DNA from: an uncultured Pirellulaceae bacterium
GTDB taxonomy: Bacteria > Planctomycetota > Planctomycetia > Pirellulales > Pirellulaceae
DNA length: 64,000 nt
Assembly: GCA_937941455.1 (NCBI GenBank)
Contig: CALDHM010000006.1
Coordinates: 1-64,000 of the forward strand
Direction: 5' to 3'
The position numbers were made by a program, and so were the translations under genes. Below the pieces are notes generated by a model that was not told the origin of the DNA, did no database searches, and saw nothing but the letters and a program-made list of their open reading frames with translations. Shown here piece by piece: positions 3,206 through 12,368 of the stretch (positions are counted from its first letter, which is position 1; the number at the start of each line of letters is the position of its first letter).

Positions 3206-4171
3206 ATGGCCATGCGATCTGCTTTGATCGATGCGAAAATTTTCGTCGCCGGACATCGCGGGATGGTCGGGCAAGCAATCGTGCGGGCCCTGGAGCGCCG
3301 CGGCTGCAGAGGTTTGATCCTCCGCGATCGCCGCGAACTCGATTTGAAGAACCAGGGGGCAGTTGAGCGGTTTTTTGCGGCGGAGCAGCCCGCAATCGTC
3401 GTGCTGGCGGCGGCGCGGGTGGGGGGCATCCATGCCAATAATACGTACCCTGCCGATTTTTTGTACGACAACTTGATGGTGGCGGCCAACGTGATCCATG
3501 CGGCCTATCGGCATCTGACGCAGCGGTTGTTGTTTTTGGGAAGCACCTGCATTTACCCGCGCGAGGCGCCGCAACCGCTGCGCGAGGAGTATCTCCTGAC
3601 CGGACCCTTGGAGACCACCAATGAAGCGTATGCCATCGCCAAGATCGCGGGGCTCAAATTATGTGCGGCCTACCGTCGCCAGCATGGCTGCCTGTTTCAT
3701 TCGGCCATGCCGACCAATTTATATGGCCCGGGGGACAACTATCATCCGCAGCATGCTCACGTGCTGCCCGCCTTGCTGCGACGGTTTCACGAGGCGCGAG
3801 AATCGGGTGCCGAGCAGGTCGTGATTTGGGGCAGCGGCACCCCCCGGCGAGAGTTCTTGTACGTCGACGACTTGGCCGAGGCGGTGTGGCATTTGCTGCA
3901 TCTGGAGAATCCACCCGACTGGGTCAACGTGGGCACGGGCCAAGACATTGCTATCGCCGACCTGGCCCGGGCTATTGCGGAAACGGTTGGTTATTCGGGC
4001 AAAATTGTTTACGATACGAGCAAGCCCGACGGGACGCCCGTCAAGCGTACCGAAATTTCTCGCATTTTGGCCACGGGTTGGCAGCCCTCGATCGACTTGA
4101 CGACCGGCTTGCGATTGGCCTACCAAAGTTTCCTGGCAGAGCGGGCGGAACAGCGATTACGAGAGGTATAA
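3206..4171 (+). CDS. fcl: GDP-L-fucose synthase
   Basis: The 321-residue NADPH-dependent SDR epimerase/reductase converts GDP-4-keto-6-deoxymannose to GDP-L-fucose. The nucleotide-binding motif [14 protein letters not shown] is near residue 16. The Ser of [12 protein letters not shown] and the Tyr/Lys pair in [14 protein letters not shown] form the active site, and the substrate segment [13 protein letters not shown] follows. Length is typical. It is 8 bp after the NusG paralog and 6 bp before gmd, whose product makes its substrate. ATG 3212 is a possible alternative start. Confidence 0.93.
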
Positions 4172-4177
4172 GACGGC

Positions 4178-5209
4178 ATGACCAAACGAGCATTGATCAC
4201 GGGAATTACCGGCCAAGACGGATCGTATCTGGCAGAATTCCTGCTGGAAAAGGGCTACGAAGTACACGGGATCGTCCGGCGCAGCAGCAGTTTCAACACG
4301 GCCCGACTGGACCATGTCTATCGCGACCCACACGACCCGATGGCCAATTTGTTCCTGCATTACGGCGATTTAACCGACGGCCAATGCATCACGAATCTGG
4401 TGCTCGATCTGCAGCCCGATGAAATCTATAACTTGGGCGCCCAAAGCCATGTGCGCGTGTCGTTCGATATCCCCGCTTATACCCTGCAGGTCGTAGGGGG
4501 GGGGGCATTGAATGTCCTGGAAGCGGCTCGGCAGTTGAACAAAACCAAAACGGTCCGCGTCTACCAAGCCAGCAGCAGTGAAATGTTTGGCGACGTCTTC
4601 GAAACTCCGCAGTCGGAGAAGACCCCCTTTCGCCCGCAGTCCCCCTATGCCTGCGCGAAGGTTTATGCGTTCCACCAAACGGTCAACTATCGACATGCTT
4701 ACGATTTGTTCGCCGTCAATGGTATCCTATATAACCATGAATCGCCCCGCCGTGGCGAAACGTTTGTCACTCGCAAGATCACGCGTGCCGCGACGCGGAT
4801 CAAATTGGGACTGCAAGACCGACTGTACTTGGGGAATTTGGAGGCACGCCGCGACTGGGGCTATGCCAAGGACTACGTCGAGGGCATGTGGATGATGATG
4901 CAACACCACGAGCCGGATGACTTCGTCCTAGCCACGGGAGAAACGCACCGCATTCGCGATTTCCTCGATTACGCGTTTGGTTATCTCGATATCGACTGGG
5001 AGAAGCACGTCGACATCGATCCCCGTTACTTCCGCCCGACTGAGGTCGATCTGCTCTTGGGTGATGCTTCGAAAGCCCGCGAGGTACTCGGCTGGGCACC
5101 GCGGTTGACTTGTCGTGGACTGGCACAATTGATGGTGGATCACGACCTGGAACTCGCGAAGCAAGAAGCGGCTGCGCGGAGCGAATGTCCCGCGCGATCC
5201 GTCGACTAA
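4178..5209 (+). CDS. gmd: GDP-mannose 4,6-dehydratase
   Basis: The 343-residue protein converts GDP-D-mannose to GDP-4-keto-6-deoxy-D-mannose, the first step to GDP-L-fucose. It shows the Rossmann motif [20 protein letters not shown] near residue 8, [13 protein letters not shown], the SSSEMFGD active-site segment, the catalytic pair in [12 protein letters not shown], and the FVTRKITRA and [17 protein letters not shown] blocks. A run of ten G (4496-4505) encodes Gly-Gly-Gly inside the gene, and a one-base slip there would truncate the protein. GAGAGG upstream of the ATG is a plausible ribosome-binding site. Confidence 0.95.
4496..4505. repeat. Poly-G tract (G10) inside gmd
   Basis: Ten consecutive G bases are read as GGG GGG GGG within codons for V-G-G-G-A about a third of the way into gmd. 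It is the longest homopolymer I noticed in the window. Such tracts are prone to replication slippage and can phase-vary surface polysaccharide genes in other bacteria. They are also frequent sites of sequencing error. Confidence 0.9.
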
Positions 5210-5544
5210 GTCGGAGGATCGATCCACTGCTTGCCGCCGTTGCCATTTGGCGGACCCTTGTTTCGCTCGGGTGTTGATTGCCAGTTTTCCACGCTCCCCC
5301 GAGGGAGTCGGCGCGCGGGCCGAAGCGGGAAAAGATTTCTTGGTTTCTGAAGTCCTGCATTGCTGACAGGTTAAATTTTCTTGACATAATCCGCGCAATC
5401 CGCATCGATGGCATCGGCTTGGAGAGGGTGCGACAAGGGCGAATCTTGTCAAACGCGGCCGCGTGTGTCACTGTGGGATAAAACGACCTGGGGGCGTACG
5501 CTCGGAAGCTTCGCCCCCGCCACACTTGCCAACGGAAATCGCGC
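5210..5544. other. Intergenic region between gmd and wecB with a promoter-like motif
   Basis: No convincing gene is present. A motif TTAAATTTTCTTGACAT (5371-5387) includes a perfect TTGACA and matches 15 of 17 bases of a motif at 8430-8446, upstream of the exosortase. I find no good -10 hexamer at 17-18 bp. The region probably carries the promoter of the wecB-wecC pair. Confidence 0.4.
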
Positions 5545-6705
5545 ATGTCGAAACAAGTTGCTGTGGTCGTGGGCACACGACCGGAGGCCATCAAGATGGC
5601 CCCTATTTACTTGGAACTGAAAAAATCGTCGATTTTGCAGCCGTTATTGCTGTCGACCGGCCAGCATCAACAGATGCTTGAGCAGGCACTGGGGGCCTTC
5701 GGCCTTGAACCCGATCACGACCTGAAATTGATGGCTCCCGGCCAACAACTGGTTGATTTGACGGCCCGCGTGTTAACGTCGGTCTACCAATTTTTGCAAG
5801 AGTTGAAACCGGCAGCGATTTTGGTTCAAGGGGACACGACCACGGTCTTCGCGGCGAGCCTGGCCGCGGCCTTTGCTGACATCCCGATCGGCCATGTCGA
5901 GGCCGGATTGCGGACCTATCAAATGCGTAGCCCCTGGCCGGAGGAGATGAATCGCCGCTTGACGTCACCGCTTTGTCGTTGGGCGTTTTGCCCAACCGAG
6001 GTCAGCCGCCGCAATCTGCTGCAAGAACAGATTCCGGCCGACAGCTGCCATGTGACGGGCAACTCGGTGATCGACGCTTTGCTGCTGATTCGCGATCGCT
6101 TGCAAGCCGCTGGAGTCTCCGGCCGCGACATCGCCGCACGGAACAAGATTTCACCTGAATTCACCGACACCTATCTCGCCGAGCGATCCGAACGCCGCTT
6201 CATTCTGGTCACTGGGCATCGCCGTGAATCCTTCGGCGAAGGTTTTCAAAACATTTGTCGCGCCCTCCTGCAAATCGTTGAAAAATATCCTGACGTGGGA
6301 GTACTCTATCCCGTGCATCTCAACCCGAACGTTCGCAAACCGGTCGATGAGATTCTGCGCGGTCATCCGGGTATCGAATTGATCGAGCCGGTGGGCTATT
6401 TGGATTTTGTTTGGTTGATGAATCGGAGCTATTTCATCTTGAGCGATTCGGGGGGAGTGCAAGAGGAAGCACCTAGCCTGGGCAAACCGGTCTTGGTCAT
6501 GCGACAATCTACGGAGCGTCCAGAGGGAGTCGACGCGGGAACCTGCCGGCTCGTCGGCACCAATCCCGCCAAAATTCTCGGCGAGGTTGCCGAGTTGCTG
6601 GAGAACCCCGATGAGTATCGCCGGCGATCCGCACTCAAGAATCCGTATGGCGATGGCCAAACCGCGCGGCGGATTCGCGAGATCTTGGAACGTGACCTCC
6701 TCTGA
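5545..6705 (+). CDS. wecB: UDP-N-acetylglucosamine 2-epimerase (non-hydrolysing)
   Basis: The 386-residue GT-B-fold enzyme interconverts UDP-GlcNAc and UDP-ManNAc. Family motifs occur in order: VGTRPEAIKMAP (about residue 10), QGDTTTVFAASLAA, GHVEAGLRTY, PEEMNRRL, LVTGHRRESFGEGF, and the UDP-binding SDSGGVQEEAPSLGKPVLVM. Length is typical. It is followed 33 bp later by the dehydrogenase that consumes its product. Confidence 0.95.
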   Translation: MSKQVAVVVGTRPEAIKMAPIYLELKKSSILQPLLLSTGQHQQMLEQALGAFGLEPDHDLKLMAPGQQLVDLTARVLTSVYQFLQELKPAAILVQGDTTTVFAASLAAAFADIPIGHVEAGLRTYQMRSPWPEEMNRRLTSPLCRWAFCPTEVSRRNLLQEQIPADSCHVTGNSVIDALLLIRDRLQAAGVSGRDIAARNKISPEFTDTYLAERSERRFILVTGHRRESFGEGFQNICRALLQIVEKYPDVGVLYPVHLNPNVRKPVDEILRGHPGIELIEPVGYLDFVWLMNRSYFILSDSGGVQEEAPSLGKPVLVMRQSTERPEGVDAGTCRLVGTNPAKILGEVAELLENPDEYRRRSALKNPYGDGQTARRIREILERDLL

Positions 6706-6738
6706 CACCTTGGTTACCTAGTGGGAAAGATTGACTGC

Positions 6739-7971
6739 ATGAGCCAGAAGTTCGACATCTGCGTCCTTGGTTTGGGTTACATCGGGTTGCCGACCGCCTC
6801 GATTTTCGCGACGAAGGGCAAAAAAGTTTTAGGGGTTGATGTTGTCCCCGCCGTCGTAGAAACGATCAACCAAGGCCGGATTCACATCCAAGAGCCGGAC
6901 TTGGATATTTTGGTGCGTGCGGCCGTGCAGAGTGGGAATCTGACGGCGGCCCTCAAGCCGGCCCCTGCCGATACGTTCATTATCGCTGTTCCGACCCCCT
7001 TTCAACATGCTTCGGCCAACTATTTGCCGGACTTGTCGTACGTCGAAGCGGCCACGCGCAGCCTTGCCCCGGTGGTCCAGCCCGGGAATTTGATAGTCTT
7101 GGAATCGACCAGTCCGGTAGGGACCACAGAACAGATCCAAGGCTGGCTACTGGACGAGTTAGGGCCCACGGCGCGGGCTGAGGACTACTTGTTCGTTCAT
7201 TGTCCGGAACGGATCTTGCCCGGTCAGATGCTGCGAGAACTTGTTACGAACGACCGTATCGTAGGGGGGCTGAGTGAACAGGCGGCACAGCGCGCGAAGG
7301 CACTGTACGAAACGTTTTGCACGGCCGAGATTTATTTGACCGACGCTCGCACGGCGGAGATGGCAAAGCTCACCGAAAATTCATTTCGCGACGTCAACAT
7401 CGCTTTTGCCAACGAATTATCGCTGATTTGCGATCGGCTGGGGATCGACGTGTGGGAGCTGATCCGCCTGGCCAACCGGCATCCCCGGGTCAACATCTTG
7501 CGTCCGGGGCCGGGTGTCGGCGGGCATTGCATTGCCGTCGATCCGTGGTTCATCGTCGCGGCCGCGCCGGAGGAGGCCCGTTTGATTCGCACGGCTCGGG
7601 AGGTCAACAATCACAAGCCGCATCATGTGATCGCCACCGTCAAACAGAAAGCGAGTCGATTCAAGGATCCCGTCATCGCCTGCTTGGGGCTCGCGTTCAA
7701 GGCGGATGTCGACGACTTGCGTGAAAGTCCGGCGATCGAGATCGTGGAACAGTTGCACCGCGAGGGCGTCGGTCGCCTGCTGGTGGTCGAGCCCAACGTT
7801 CGCGAACTCCCCCAGCGACTGGTGGGCAAGGCGGAATGGTCATCGGCCGAAGAGGCGTTGGCCGCAGCGGACATCGTGCTGGTGTTGGTCGACCATCGTC
7901 AGTTCAAAGGCCTGCCGCGGCGACTATTCGATCAACGGGTCGTGATTGATACGCGGGGTTTGTGGTCGTAG
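6739..7971 (+). CDS. wecC: UDP-N-acetyl-D-mannosamine dehydrogenase
   Basis: The enzyme oxidises UDP-ManNAc to UDP-ManNAcA with NAD+. The Rossmann motif LGLGYIGLPTASIFATKGKK is at the N-terminus. Later motifs are FVHCPERILPGQML, the Lys/Asn-bearing AKLTENSFRDVNIAFANEL, the catalytic Cys in GVGGHCIAVDPWFI, and AFKADVDDLRESPA in the C-terminal domain. I prefer ATG 6739, preceded by GGGAAAGA, over the GTG at 6721. That gives 410 residues. With wecB it supplies an acidic sugar for a surface polymer. Confidence 0.93.
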   Translation: MSQKFDICVLGLGYIGLPTASIFATKGKKVLGVDVVPAVVETINQGRIHIQEPDLDILVRAAVQSGNLTAALKPAPADTFIIAVPTPFQHASANYLPDLSYVEAATRSLAPVVQPGNLIVLESTSPVGTTEQIQGWLLDELGPTARAEDYLFVHCPERILPGQMLRELVTNDRIVGGLSEQAAQRAKALYETFCTAEIYLTDARTAEMAKLTENSFRDVNIAFANELSLICDRLGIDVWELIRLANRHPRVNILRPGPGVGGHCIAVDPWFIVAAAPEEARLIRTAREVNNHKPHHVIATVKQKASRFKDPVIACLGLAFKADVDDLRESPAIEIVEQLHREGVGRLLVVEPNVRELPQRLVGKAEWSSAEEALAAADIVLVLVDHRQFKGLPRRLFDQRVVIDTRGLWS

Positions 7972-8546: not shown

Positions 8547-10352
8547 ATGACAACCTCGTCCATTTCCATGACCAAAGACGCTAGCGCGTCGAATCGAATT
8601 ACCGGGCAGGCCGTGCTGATTCCCTACTTGATCGGCATGGCGGCTCAAATTCCGATGTTGCTGCTGTACTTTCGAAATCTTTGGGCCAAGCCGCACTATC
8701 AGTTCTTTCCGGTTGCACTGATTGCGATCGCAGTTTTTGCGTTTTTTCGTTGGCCTAGCCAGCGATTCACGTACCGCCAAAGCTGGTTTAGTTTGGCGAT
8801 GCTTTTTTTCGGTCTCTTATTTGGGATTGCGGCTTGGCTTTACATGGAGCCGTGGTTCGCGATGGCTTGCCTATTTAGTTTATTGGCAAGCTTGTTGGCC
8901 ATGGTGCCCGACACGGAATCCGAAAAAAGTCTGGTGCCGATTTCGTTGTTGGCCTTGATCTGTTTGACCCCGCCGTTCGGCTTTGACGCGCGGCTGATCA
9001 CTTGGTTGCAACAGGTCAGTGCGCGGATCACGACCAACATGCTCGACCTAGTTGGTTACCCGCATTACATGCCGGGGACGGTGATTTTGGCACCGGGAAC
9101 GCAGGGTTTTGGAATTGAAGAAGCTTGTAGCGGCGTCCAATCCTTTTTCACTCTGTTGTTCGTTGCGGCGTTTTTCATCGTCTTTTTTCGACGGCCTTGG
9201 TTTCGCGGTCTGCTGCTTTTGGCGTCGGTGGTCTTTTGGGCCATCTTCATGAATAGCTTGCGGATATTCGCGATTCCCATCGCTCAATATTTGTTCCGCT
9301 GGGATTTGGCCCATGGACTCCCCCACGCCTTGTTGGGATACACGACGCTGGCATTGGGGATTTTGATGGTCTACAGTACCGATCAATTCTTGCTGTTTTT
9401 GTTCGGTCCCACGGAACGATTCGCCGACGATGAGATGGGCTATGCCAGCCGCATTACCCGATTTTGGAACTATTTCATCAGCGGGAATACCGAGACGCAG
9501 CGAAAACGTCGTTCGTGGTCTAGCATCGGTCAAAAGACCATGACAACGACCTGGGTCGTAGCCGGGTTGATTGGCCTAGCTGGGCTCGTGACGATCTTCG
9601 ACGTGTTTCGTTCGCTAACGCAGCCTGAACTCAAAATTCGTTTGTTCGAAACCGACGTCGAAATCCCCTTGGCCAAGGAAGACCTGCCTCAATCGGTCAT
9701 GGGTGACTGGCAGTTGGTCGAATACAAAAACGAAACCCGCAGCCGCGGCAGCGACCTTGGCCGGGTTTCCAACATCTGGACTTACTTGAGCCCCGATCCG
9801 ACCACGGAGAATCGTGCGGCGAATCCCAACGATCAAGTCAACCGCTTCCTCGCGACCTTCTCCTTCGACCAGACGTTCCCCGGCTGGCATGAGTTGACCA
9901 CCTGCTACAAAAACCAAGGTTGGAAGATCAACGTCCGCTTGCGGCATGCCGGTTCCACGGGCGAGAACGAAAAGAGCTGGCCCTATATCACCGCGCGGAT
10001 GAGCAACAGCGTCGGCCAATACGGTTTCATCGTCTTCAGCCTTTTCGATTCCTTTGGAGACGCTCTCGATGCTCCTGGTGATTGGAACGTAGTGCAATGG
10101 CTGCTCCGCGGTGCGACCAATCGGATGCGCAATCGGATTCGCGGCAGTCTGTTCAGGGGCGAAGCCTATCAATCGCAAATGTTCGTGTCGCAATTCCGTC
10201 CGATCACCCCTGCCATGGAGGAGATGATCGTCGAAAAGTATTTGGAAGCCCGGGAACAAGTGCGAAAACAATTCTTGTTGCGACGCCAACAAGAGGACGG
10301 TGGAGCGACTCCGTCGGCAAGTTCAACCGAGAACGCTGTCACCGCCAACTGA
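8547..10352 (+). CDS. Exosortase (Xrt family) with C-terminal extension
   Basis: This 601-residue protein has about eight membrane segments in its first 300 residues and a soluble C-terminal part after a further membrane segment (about residues 335-355). The catalytic triad is visible as Cys194 in GFGIEEACSGVQSFF, Arg239 in NSLRIFAIPI, and His260 in GLPHALLGY. Exosortases cleave PEP-CTERM proteins at the inner membrane and are paired with exopolysaccharide genes, as here. The C-terminal third resembles EpsI-like exosortase-associated domains, and planctomycetes have such fused forms (possibly XrtU). A likely substrate is encoded at 19424-19975. Confidence 0.88.
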   Translation: MTTSSISMTKDASASNRITGQAVLIPYLIGMAAQIPMLLLYFRNLWAKPHYQFFPVALIAIAVFAFFRWPSQRFTYRQSWFSLAMLFFGLLFGIAAWLYMEPWFAMACLFSLLASLLAMVPDTESEKSLVPISLLALICLTPPFGFDARLITWLQQVSARITTNMLDLVGYPHYMPGTVILAPGTQGFGIEEACSGVQSFFTLLFVAAFFIVFFRRPWFRGLLLLASVVFWAIFMNSLRIFAIPIAQYLFRWDLAHGLPHALLGYTTLALGILMVYSTDQFLLFLFGPTERFADDEMGYASRITRFWNYFISGNTETQRKRRSWSSIGQKTMTTTWVVAGLIGLAGLVTIFDVFRSLTQPELKIRLFETDVEIPLAKEDLPQSVMGDWQLVEYKNETRSRGSDLGRVSNIWTYLSPDPTTENRAANPNDQVNRFLATFSFDQTFPGWHELTTCYKNQGWKINVRLRHAGSTGENEKSWPYITARMSNSVGQYGFIVFSLFDSFGDALDAPGDWNVVQWLLRGATNRMRNRIRGSLFRGEAYQSQMFVSQFRPITPAMEEMIVEKYLEAREQVRKQFLLRRQQEDGGATPSASSTENAVTAN

Positions 10353-10470
10353 GCTGTTCGGGGCCGCTGATTTGGCTCGGGCTGATGCTACTTGGAAGCC
10401 CAATGAGTAGTTCGTACCGCGATAAGGAATACCCGCCCAACGGCGGCTGCAATTTCAGGAGGCCCTTCGA

Positions 10471-11352
10471 TTGATCGACCAAGCCCTTATCGTGGTGGCC
10501 GGACTGGGTACTCGGCTACTACCTCTCAGCGCGGCGATTCCCAAGGAATTGCTGCCGGTGGGGCGAAAACCGGGGTTGCAATGGATCGCCGAGGAATTGT
10601 GCCAGGCCGGAGTTCGGCAGCTGGTGCTGGTCACCTCGCCGAGGAAAAATCAGATCGCCGCTCTCTTCGATACCGACGGCAGCCTGCGCAACGCGTTAGC
10701 TGGATCGAAGACGCCGCTCGCGGCCACGGGACTATGGAGCGCGGGGCCCTACGCCGAGACGCCAATCCGTATCGCGTGGCAACATGAGCAACATGGGCTC
10801 GGACATGCTGTGTTGTGTGCAGCCGATTCGGTCCGGCCCGACCCCTTCATCTTGGCATTGGGTGATACGGTGATTCATCCTCTAGGTTCCGCGCGATTGA
10901 TGCGGGAAATGACCGAGGTGTTCGAAGCTAACACCGCCGACGCGGTCATCGCTTTCCAAGCCGTGGACTCGTCCGCCGTCTCCCGCTATGGCATTGCCGA
11001 TCCGGACCGCGACGACCGTGTGTTCGGATTGCGTGATTTGATCGAAAAGCCATCGGCCGCCGCGGCCCCGAGCCGATTGGCGGTCGCCGCCCGCTACGTA
11101 TTTCAACCGACGATTTTCGACTTTTTGCGGCGTACGGAACCCGGTTACGGTGGGGAGATTCAGCTGACCGACGCCATCCGGCTGATGATTCGCGAGGGGG
11201 GGCGCGTTATGGGAGTGGTGCTGCCTCGGGGGGAAAAACGGATCGATCTCGGGAGCTACGACGATTTCGCGGACGCATTCATCGAGCAAGCATTCCGTGA
11301 CGATCCGCAGTTACGGGCGCGGTGGCGCGAGGAGCTTGAGCGAAATCCATGA
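10471..11352 (+). CDS. UTP-sugar-1-phosphate uridylyltransferase (GalU-like)
   Basis: The 293-residue nucleotidyltransferase has the GalU signature VVAGLGTRLLPLSAAIPKEL at its N-terminus, then PVGRKPGLQWI, the metal-binding LALGDTVIHP and a C-terminal KRIDLGSYDDFADAF. It starts at TTG 10471, supported by AGGAGG at 10457-10462. GalU makes UDP-glucose from glucose-1-phosphate. The ATGA overlap with a glucuronokinase-like gene suggests that the substrate here may be glucuronate-1-phosphate, giving UDP-glucuronate. That substrate assignment is inference. Confidence 0.85.
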   Translation: MIDQALIVVAGLGTRLLPLSAAIPKELLPVGRKPGLQWIAEELCQAGVRQLVLVTSPRKNQIAALFDTDGSLRNALAGSKTPLAATGLWSAGPYAETPIRIAWQHEQHGLGHAVLCAADSVRPDPFILALGDTVIHPLGSARLMREMTEVFEANTADAVIAFQAVDSSAVSRYGIADPDRDDRVFGLRDLIEKPSAAAAPSRLAVAARYVFQPTIFDFLRRTEPGYGGEIQLTDAIRLMIREGGRVMGVVLPRGEKRIDLGSYDDFADAFIEQAFRDDPQLRARWREELERNP

Positions 11353-12368
11353 AGCGAATCGTGCGCCGGACCTATGCCCGCGCGGGCTTGTTGGGAAACC
11401 CCTCCGATGGTTATCACGGCAAAACCATCAGCTTGATCGTCGGCCAACTCTTCGCCGAAGTCGAATTTCGCGAGTCGGCCGAGATCGCGATCTTGCCCAT
11501 GCCCAGCGAGCGTCGAAGCTTCGCGTCGTTGCCCAGCCTGCGGGATTCCGTTGCCACTTGTGGATACTATGGCAGCGAACGATTGATCCTGGCGGCACTC
11601 AAAAAGTTTTATGACTTCTTTGGCGGCACGCGGCTCGCCGGCGAACCGAATTTCACCGTTTCGGCCACGACCAACATTCCACGCTCGGTCGGTTTGGCAG
11701 GTTCCAGTGCGATCGTCATGGCGACTCTCCGCGCCGCGTTGGGCTGGTATGGCCTTGCGCTGGCTCCCGATGTCTTGGCGTCGCTGACATTGGCCGTCGA
11801 GCGGGAGGAACTAGGGATCCCGGCTGGCTTGCAGGACCGCGTGATCCAAGCCTACGAAGGCCTAGTGTTCATGGATTTTTCGCTTGAGGGAATGCGGAAC
11901 GAACACGGGCTTGCCATGGGACGTTACGAAACCTTGGACCCGCAACTACTCCCCCCCCTCTATGTGGCCTACGCGATCGATCAAGGAGAGCCGACAGAAG
12001 TTTTTCACCACGATCTGCGGGCTCGTTTTGCCGCCGGCGAGCCGGCTGTCGTCGCAGGTATGAAGCGTTTTGCCGAATTAGCAGAATTGGGCCGCGCGGC
12101 ATTATTGCGGCGCGACTATCGCGAGTTGCACGACTTAATCAATGCGAACTTCGATCTCCGCCACTCAATTTGCCGCCTCAATCCGGCTCATCGCGCCATG
12201 GTGGAGGCCGCTCGTGCGACCGGAGCGTCTGCCAAATTCTGCGGGAGCGGTGGCGCCATCATCGGCACTTTCGACGGTGCAGGAATGTATCGCGCTCTGG
12301 CCGATACACTTGCTCGCCAAGGTTGCGGCATCCTCCGTCCGCATGTCGGATTTTTTCAAGAGGGATGA
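11349..12368 (+). CDS. GHMP kinase, glucuronokinase-like
   Basis: The 339-residue protein carries the GHMP ATP-binding motif TNIPRSVGLAGSSAIVMATL (about residues 108-127) and the C-terminal motif FCGSGGAIIGTFDG. The N-terminal YARAGLLGNPSDGYHGKTIS resembles plant glucuronokinase (RVGLLGNPSDxYxGxxIS), which phosphorylates D-glucuronate at C1. It overlaps the preceding uridylyltransferase by four bases. The two could therefore salvage glucuronate to UDP-glucuronate for polysaccharide. The alternative is a heptose or fucose kinase of the same superfamily. Confidence 0.78.
   Translation: MKRIVRRTYARAGLLGNPSDGYHGKTISLIVGQLFAEVEFRESAEIAILPMPSERRSFASLPSLRDSVATCGYYGSERLILAALKKFYDFFGGTRLAGEPNFTVSATTNIPRSVGLAGSSAIVMATLRAALGWYGLALAPDVLASLTLAVEREELGIPAGLQDRVIQAYEGLVFMDFSLEGMRNEHGLAMGRYETLDPQLLPPLYVAYAIDQGEPTEVFHHDLRARFAAGEPAVVAGMKRFAELAELGRAALLRRDYRELHDLINANFDLRHSICRLNPAHRAMVEAARATGASAKFCGSGGAIIGTFDGAGMYRALADTLARQGCGILRPHVGFFQEG

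What the first reader, a model, noticed from the sequence alone, without database searches (positions are those of the whole stretch)
10471..12368. Coupled uridylyltransferase and glucuronokinase-like kinase
A four-base overlap joins a GalU-like enzyme to a GHMP kinase whose N-terminus resembles plant glucuronokinase. Together they could make UDP-glucuronate from free glucuronate, a salvage route known mainly from plants.
Basis: partly seen in the sequence, partly recalled or inferred. Interest (0 to 1): 0.5.

Follow-up and report, generated by a model that had tools for sequence, protein, structure and literature searches.

The report
Bacterial glucuronate-to-UDP-sugar gene pair
Two overlapping bacterial genes look like the two steps that turn a free sugar acid, most likely glucuronate, into the building block UDP-glucuronate, a recycling route known from plants and some animals; related gene pairs occur patchily in several bacterial phyla, but no activity has been measured for them.

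Summary
Two genes share ATGA at 11349-11352: a GalU-like uridylyltransferase (10471-11352) and a GHMP kinase (11349-12368). The kinase resembles plant glucuronokinase along its length, not only at the N-terminus (43% to an Arabidopsis sequence that I recalled: a lead, not a database match). Of 80 kinase relatives sampled from several phyla, 69 have a GalU-like gene in the locus: 62 just upstream, 7 downstream. The window's transferase scores far below the curated GalU cut-off, is the only GalU homologue found in its genome, and in 12 related genomes is present or absent together with the kinase. Its clade carries substitutions absent or rare in reference GalUs. Zebrafish has the same order in one protein (PMC3938481).

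Best reading: a two-gene salvage module making UDP-glucuronate from glucuronate. A UDP-uronate of some kind is likely; glucuronate is less sure. The loop of this kinase clade (E-P/G-T-E) differs from the plant/phage loop (S-G), and in 4 genomes the same transferase type precedes a remote GHMP kinase instead. No assay exists. A new bacterial variant of a known pathway.

The parts
10457..10462 (+). Shine-Dalgarno-like AGGAGG, 8 nt before the TTG start
   Evidence: sequence
10471..11352 (+). GalU-like sugar-1-phosphate uridylyltransferase (293 aa), 'G-R type' (LPVGRKP where reference GalUs have V-D; A206-A207)
11349..11352 (+). ATGA overlap joining the two genes
11349..12368 (+). GHMP sugar-1-kinase of the glucuronokinase type (339 aa)
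8547..10352 (+). exosortase XrtU directly upstream (context; order wecB-wecC-xrtU-transferase-kinase kept in nearest relative L001)
3206..7971 (+). nucleotide-sugar genes (context): GDP-fucose synthase-like (474.7 bits, just under the cut-off of 500), gmd, wecB-type epimerase, wecC-type UDP-ManNAc dehydrogenase

Best explanation
A two-enzyme salvage module. The kinase phosphorylates C1 of a free uronic acid, most likely D-glucuronate, with ATP; the GalU-derived transferase joins the sugar-1-phosphate to UTP, giving UDP-glucuronate and pyrophosphate. The overlap keeps the two products in step. In this planctomycete the UDP-sugar probably feeds surface polysaccharide or glycan assembly next to the exosortase cluster. 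Shown here: gene anatomy, families, conserved pairing, divergence of the transferase from reference GalUs. Inferred: substrates, nucleotide, direction, cellular role.
For: (1) Pairing: 69 of 80 kinase loci carry a GalU-like gene in the locus, 62 upstream (29 of 62 overlapping by at least one base, 51 of 62 with a gap of 10 nt or less; starts chosen by a simple rule) and 7 downstream; other recurring neighbour families reach at most 9 loci. (2) Co-occurrence: among the 12 sampled genomes of the same family, order or class, both genes are present and adjacent in the same 5 and both missing in the other 7; the window's transferase is the only GalU homologue found in its genome. (3) It is not an ordinary GalU: 206.7 bits against the GalU cut-off 326.8; 4 of 24 genomes with the pair carry a further strong GalU homologue (304-335 bits; the one of them that I scored passes the GalU cut-off, 369.2); the upstream transferases fall in one clade (99) with substitutions absent or rare in 13 reference GalUs: G31, R32, A206, A207. 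(4) Kinase: 43% over 310 residues to recalled Arabidopsis glucuronokinase, 49% between that sequence and a phage homologue; R11, N17, S19, D20, E151, D163, R164, N267 and R271 invariant in the four groups compared. (5) Distant kinases (7 of 8) are followed by another kind of nucleotidyltransferase, so a sugar-1-kinase/nucleotidyltransferase partnership recurs. (6) Zebrafish: transferase then glucuronate-specific kinase in one protein. (7) No UxaC uronate isomerase found in the genome, while 7 of 14 controls ring.
Against: No activity is known to me for any member of this bacterial clade. The loop E214-P/G-T/S-E217 marks most of the GalU-linked clade, whereas plant (recalled), phage, Rufibacter and the distant kinases have S-G there: a possible change of substrate. 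The transferase is not tied to this kinase alone: of 15 sampled genomes of the phylum with a strong transferase hit (330 bits or more), 6 have it beside this kinase, 3 have the kinase on another contig (G145, G114, G080), 4 have it directly before a remote GHMP kinase (25-31% identity; G075, G055, G061, G130), in G160 the contig ends behind it, and G138 has a plain V-D GalU without the kinase. Of 13 genomes with a strong kinase hit (290 bits or more), 3 (G010, G041, G029) show no transferase hit. The window proteins are divergent members: H105 and Y226 where most paired transferases are basic. A de novo route exists: an animal-like UDP-glucose dehydrogenase. The search for myo-inositol oxygenase was uninformative (no control rang). 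The zebrafish transferase was almost inactive. 11 of 80 loci show no transferase; at least L041 and L076 are cut by the contig end. The two downstream-type partners scored (L045, L093) pass the GalU cut-off.
Confidence: 0.5

Rival explanations
1. Same module, other sugar: the kinase acts on another uronic acid or related acidic sugar (for example galacturonate or mannuronate) and the pair makes the matching UDP-uronate.
For: The GalU-linked kinase clade has its own loop (E-P/G-T/S-E in place of S-G). The plant/phage kinases need not lie inside that clade: a tree holding the clade together without them is 23.9 log units better than the quick tree. The same transferase type also precedes remote GHMP kinases, so it may serve more than one sugar.
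Against: Core residues are shared with the plant-type and phage kinases; identity to the recalled plant enzyme is 43%. By the zebrafish paper, Arabidopsis galacturonate kinase is very diverse in sequence although its substrate is similar.
Confidence: 0.28
2. The transferase is simply the genome's UDP-glucose pyrophosphorylase and the kinase is an unrelated neighbour.
For: It is the only GalU homologue found in its genome; the catalytic-type residues (K25, D132, E192-K193, D259) are kept; the two downstream-type partners scored (L045, L093) pass the GalU cut-off; some genomes have a G-R transferase without this kinase beside it.
Against: Missing from 7 of 12 close relatives together with the kinase; a PF01704 pyrophosphorylase-family protein is found in 162 of 199 genomes of the phylum, all 12 close ones included, though its product is not known and no control genome rang; 4 of 24 genomes have a further strong GalU homologue; score far below the GalU cut-off.
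Confidence: 0.12
3. A heptose or galactose salvage pair (kinase related to HddA/WcbL or to galactokinase).
For: The nearest solved structures by sequence and fold are heptose kinases and mevalonate kinases.
Against: Only 42 bits against a cut-off of 600 for HddA, and 21 against 443 for galactokinase; 18% identity to WcbL. Heptose partners that I recall use GTP or ATP, not UTP.
Confidence: 0.05

Closest known systems
Plant glucuronokinase plus UDP-sugar pyrophosphorylase (EC 2.7.1.43 and USP; myo-inositol oxygenation pathway)
   Same: Kinase of the same type along its length (recalled sequence); same two-step logic, sugar-1-kinase then UTP-dependent pyrophosphorylase.
   Different: USP is a separate broad-range enzyme of plants, eukaryote parasites and a few bacteria (PMC6329318, passages); here the partner is GalU-derived and overlaps the kinase gene. 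Kinase loop differs.
Zebrafish DrGKUP bifunctional glucuronokinase/putative pyrophosphorylase (PMC3938481)
   Same: Order transferase then kinase; the kinase used only glucuronate of nine sugars tested (Km 31 uM).
   Different: One fused protein with a ~260-aa transferase and very low transferase activity; the paper found the related prokaryotic transferases only as single-domain proteins. I had no sequence to compare.
GalU, bacterial UTP-glucose-1-phosphate uridylyltransferase (TIGR01099)
   Same: Same family; catalytic-type residues conserved.
   Different: Below the equivalog cut-off; separate clade; V31-D32 replaced by G-R and G207 by A in most upstream-paired members.
Bacteroides FKP, fucokinase/GDP-fucose pyrophosphorylase (PMC11982464, search listing with start of abstract only)
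   Same: Kinase plus pyrophosphorylase salvage logic.
   Different: One bifunctional protein, fucose, GDP-sugar product.

Membership tests
GHMP kinase superfamily | GHMP N and C domains over the curated cut-offs; fold | tested here: met
   PF00288 51.3 (22.3), PF08544 25.4 (21); AlphaFold mean pLDDT 90.1, Foldseek best WcbL E 8.7e-17
Glucuronokinase (EC 2.7.1.43) | Full-length sequence relation to the characterised plant or animal enzymes | tested here: inconclusive
Glucuronokinase (EC 2.7.1.43) | Phosphorylates D-glucuronate at C1 with ATP, and not other common sugars | not testable with these tools
   needs an assay
Glucuronokinase (EC 2.7.1.43) | Plant/phage-type S-G loop at 215-217 (my own criterion, not an established one) | tested here: not met
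   window has E-P-T-E
GalU (TIGR01099 equivalog) | Score over the curated cut-off | tested here: not met
   206.7 against 326.8 bits
GalU (TIGR01099 equivalog) | Conserved catalytic-type residues K25, D132, E192-K193, D259 (roles recalled) | tested here: met
   K25, D132, E192, K193, D259 invariant in the 44-row alignment A2; the last four in 61 of 61 upstream-paired rows
GalU (TIGR01099 equivalog) | Uses glucose-1-phosphate | not testable with these tools
   needs an assay
DrGKUP-type bifunctional enzyme | Both domains in one polypeptide | tested here: not met
   two ORFs in different frames with a stop between
DrGKUP-type bifunctional enzyme | Order transferase then kinase | tested here: met
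   order of DrGKUP from PMC3938481

The most novel reading that the evidence does not exclude
A bacterial pathway for making UDP-glucuronate (or another UDP-uronate) from the free acid, spread patchily over several phyla, in which glucuronokinase-type kinases go with different nucleotidyltransferases: a re-specialised GalU upstream, a GalU-like gene downstream, or a ~250-residue transferase downstream; the plant and animal pathways would be eukaryotic branches of this bacterial system, and phages carry the kinase too.
Probability: 0.42. Interest if true: 0.65.

Novelty: new variant of a known kind. Interest (0 to 1): 0.5.

Why it matters
If true, some bacteria can recycle glucuronate straight into UDP-glucuronate without UDP-glucose dehydrogenase. 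It would name a patchily distributed gene pair that is now annotated, for example in Rufibacter, only as 'GHMP kinase' and 'GalU', could supply bacterial enzymes for UDP-glucuronate synthesis, and would make the origin of the plant and animal glucuronokinases testable. A paired bacterial transferase might also supply the active partner that the zebrafish work lacked.

Tried and rejected
Housekeeping GalU beside an unrelated kinase: made unlikely by joint presence and absence in close relatives, the low GalU score and genomes with a further GalU homologue. Heptose or galactose kinase: far below the cut-offs. 'Plant enzyme nested inside the bacterial clade': the quick tree showed it, but a constrained tree with plant, phage and Rufibacter outside was 23.9 log units better (p-AU 0.79), so no claim is made. 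'Two independent recruitments of GalU': not shown; one joint clade of upstream and downstream partners is not rejected (p-AU 0.42). Myo-inositol oxygenase: no control rang, uninformative. Chloroflexota sample (E <= 1e-50): 1 of 201, the seed genome itself. Promoter and terminator scans: near the shuffles (1 found against 1.5; 7 against 5.6). Literature: searches 'glucuronokinase' (54 papers, 40 listed), with bacteria and operon (4), with Planctomycetes (0), with archaea and homolog (2), and name variants (47 papers, 30 listed; 32 papers, 15 listed; 31 papers, 25 listed). From these listings I saw no characterised bacterial glucuronokinase; the original Arabidopsis paper was not held, and most subscription papers are not held.

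Rows left out before counts: one search kept the best 80 of 161 relatives, found with patterns from the window kinase, so the sample leans to near relatives. A1 holds 52 of 81 kinases, A2 44 of 70 transferases. The kinase tree used 78 of 101 rows, the transferase trees 66 of 85 and 73 of 94; near-copies, fragments and, two long Chloroflexota rows were dropped. In the residue comparison 68 of 70 paired transferases were used (two fragments under 270 aa dropped). Two kinase rows (L125, L128) contain an X, and rows were cut at 345-360 residues. G194 appears to be the genome of L025 (same coordinates), so the two samples are not fully independent.

Full report
WHAT IS THERE. The window holds a 293-aa GalU-like ORF (10471-11352, TTG start behind AGGAGG) and a 339-aa GHMP kinase ORF (11349-12368), sharing ATGA. 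Upstream on the same strand lie a GDP-fucose synthase-like gene, gmd, a wecB-type epimerase, a wecC-type dehydrogenase and the exosortase XrtU; a glycosyltransferase-like gene follows on the other strand. In the nearest relative, L001 (70% kinase identity), wecB, wecC, xrtU, transferase and kinase have the same order. L003 and L004 have an xrtU homologue in the locus and L002 has fcl, gmd and wecB. In the other loci of the sample this search (E <= 1e-15) found only a gmd homologue in L012 and a wecB homologue in L045. Recurring neighbour families other than the pair reach at most 9 loci, and two of those look like antisense shadows of the pair.

THE PAIR IS A UNIT. A genome-collection scan gave 80 kept kinase relatives of 161 found (46-70% identity), by record titles in Planctomycetota, Verrucomicrobia, Chloroflexi, Acidobacteria, Balneolales and others. 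A GalU-like gene lies in 69 of 80 loci: 62 upstream (29 overlapping by at least one base, 51 with a gap of 10 nt or less, largest gap 74; starts chosen by a simple rule) and 7 downstream. Of the 11 loci without it, at least L041 and L076 are cut by the contig end. In an even sample of 199 genomes of the window's phylum, the kinase (E <= 1e-40) is in 20 and the transferase (E <= 1e-25) in 20. Among the 12 genomes of the same family, order or class both are present and adjacent in the same 5 and both missing in 7.

FARTHER OUT THE LINK LOOSENS. Of 15 genomes of that sample with a strong transferase hit (330 bits or more), 6 have it beside this kinase (5 upstream, G111 downstream) and 3 (G145, G114, G080) have the kinase on another contig. 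I read out the other 6 and those 3. In G075, G055, G061 and G130 the transferase, of the G-R type or nearly so (A-R in G130), is directly followed by a remote GHMP kinase (25-31% identity) with an S-G loop; in G160 the contig ends behind it; G138 has a plain V-D GalU and no kinase nearby. Of 13 genomes with a strong kinase hit (290 bits or more), 10 also have a transferase hit (partial in G098) and 3 (G010, G041, G029) do not. So a GHMP kinase beside this transferase is common in what I saw, but it is not always this kinase. In Chloroflexota only the seed genome of 201 had the kinase at E <= 1e-50.

THE TRANSFERASE IS NOT AN ORDINARY GALU. It scores 206.7 bits against the curated GalU cut-off of 326.8. 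A paired relative, L065, also falls short (303.7), while an unlinked acidobacterial GalU, L118 (369.2), and two downstream-type partners, L045 and L093 (342.8, 352.5), pass. It is the only GalU homologue found in the window's genome. The PF01704 pyrophosphorylase family, found in 162 of 199 genomes of the phylum and in all 12 close ones (no control genome rang), is a candidate for other UDP-sugar synthesis, but its product is unknown. Of 24 genomes with the pair, 4 (reached through loci titled as acidobacterial) have a further strong GalU homologue (304-335 bits); some others have only weaker relatives (163 bits or less). Upstream partners form one clade (support 99) and seven downstream partners another (94; L035, L045, L050, L055, L068, L093, L139), though one joint origin is not rejected (p-AU 0.42). 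With the nine further transferases added, the upstream clade (99) also takes in eight of them. Against 13 reference GalUs, upstream partners have G31 (59 of 61) and R32 (55 of 61) where the references have V and D (13 of 13 each), and A207 (59 of 61) where they have G (13 of 13). Both kinds of partner share A206 (60 of 61 and 7 of 7; 1 of 13 in references) and S or T at 133 (56 of 61 and 7 of 7; none of 13). Position 105 is R in 55 of 61 upstream partners and K in 7 of 7 downstream ones; 226 is K or R in 46 of 61 and K in 7 of 7. At both the window itself differs (H105, Y226), and references carry K at 105 in 2 of 13 and R at 226 in 4 of 13. That 206-209 line the sugar pocket is recalled from RmlA and GalU structures, not tested.

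THE KINASE. It matches both GHMP domains, and no NCBIfam model matched reaches its cut-off. The AlphaFold model (mean pLDDT 90.1) has the GHMP fold; its best matches are the heptokinase WcbL and mevalonate kinases at about 18% identity. No molecule named glucuronokinase appeared among the solved structures listed. At 53 columns where the bacterial consensus differs from the window, it agrees with the consensus at 20, with the window at 6 and with neither at 27, so it is not an echo of the window. Still, it is a lead, not a test. R11, N17, S19, D20, E151, D163, R164, N267 and R271 are invariant in upstream-linked (63), downstream-linked (9), distant (7) and plant/phage (3) kinases. The main difference is a loop: E-P/G-T/S-E in most of the GalU-linked clade against S-G in plant (recalled), phage, Rufibacter and the distant kinases. 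This is the main reason for doubt on the sugar.

ANOTHER KIND OF PARTNER. Eight distant kinases in the phylum (33-40% identity) were read out. Seven (L126-L132) are directly followed by a ~250-aa nucleotidyltransferase: three were scanned with Pfam and NCBIfam (L126, L127, L129) and four recognised by 42-47% identity to these. Their best NCBIfam hits (AglF, RmlA-long, archaeal GlmU models) are far below cut-off, and for L126 the nearest solved structures are mannose-1-phosphate guanylyltransferases (53.7 bits), so their nucleotide is unknown. The eighth (L125), like L064 from a Verrucomicrobia record, sits with xylose-isomerase-like and Gfo/Idh/MocA genes. So kinases of this family keep company with more than one kind of sugar-1-phosphate nucleotidyltransferase, which supports the two-step logic whatever the sugar.

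WHAT IS KNOWN. The zebrafish paper (read: abstract, introduction, start of the methods, sequence analysis, substrate specificity, pyrophosphorylase activity, discussion; passages elsewhere) describes a transferase-glucuronokinase fusion. Its kinase acted only on glucuronate among nine sugars; its transferase gave a small amount of UDP-glucuronate in a 70-hour assay; the authors found the related prokaryotic transferases only as single-domain proteins. UDP-sugar pyrophosphorylases with broad range are reviewed in PMC6329318 (passages). In PMC12203929 (section 16 and passages) six UDP-glucose pyrophosphorylases were specific for glucose-1-phosphate; the text seen names cassava and potato enzymes as examples and does not say whether the E. 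coli enzyme was among the six. My searches showed no characterised bacterial glucuronokinase in their listings.

HOW IT MOST LIKELY WORKS. Free glucuronate is phosphorylated at C1 by the kinase; the transferase then forms UDP-glucuronate with UTP. The genome (96% complete by the tool) shows no UxaC (7 of 14 controls ring), so that uronate breakdown route seems missing, while a UDP-glucose dehydrogenase nearest to animal enzymes (organisms of those PDB entries recalled) offers the de novo route: salvage would be a supplement. I put 0.50 on glucuronate and about 0.75 on a UDP-uronate of some kind.

Noticed in passing
L091 2995-3981 and L092 2998-4017 (IMG/VR contigs): Two viral contigs carry glucuronokinase-like kinases (35-38% to the window, 45% to each other). 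L092 is flanked by RecA-like and queuosine-type (QueC/QueD/QueE-like, by eye) genes: a phage-borne sugar kinase of unknown purpose.
   Followed up: partly
L147 2613-3599, L148 3549-4553, L149 2326-3429, L150 2618-3676: Remote GHMP kinases (25-31% to the window or L065 kinase; motifs GNPTD-YGG and CGYQD, S-G loop) directly behind a transferase of the window's type: perhaps the same pathway with another sugar.
   Followed up: partly
L090:1204-3729 (own genome C30): An 841-aa fusion of a UDPGP-family pyrophosphorylase (PF01704) and a ManC-type mannose-1-phosphate guanylyltransferase.
   Followed up: partly
L085:1465-2889 (own genome C26): UDP-glucose dehydrogenase far nearer to one set of solved enzymes (634 bits to 2q3e, recalled as human) than to others listed (259 bits or less, recalled as bacterial).
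   Followed up: partly
L126-L132: Distant kinases each followed by a ~250-aa nucleotidyltransferase, in L126 then by a Gfo/Idh/MocA dehydrogenase.
   Followed up: partly
L064, L066, L070, L125: In L064 and L125 kinase relatives adjoin xylose-isomerase-like and Gfo/Idh/MocA genes without a GalU-like gene; L066 and L070 have the same ORF layout and a Gfo/Idh/MocA homologue.
   Followed up: no
window 8547-10352: Exosortase XrtU (NF033780, 127.1 bits, cut-off 40) directly upstream of the pair, with nucleotide-sugar genes before it.
   Followed up: partly
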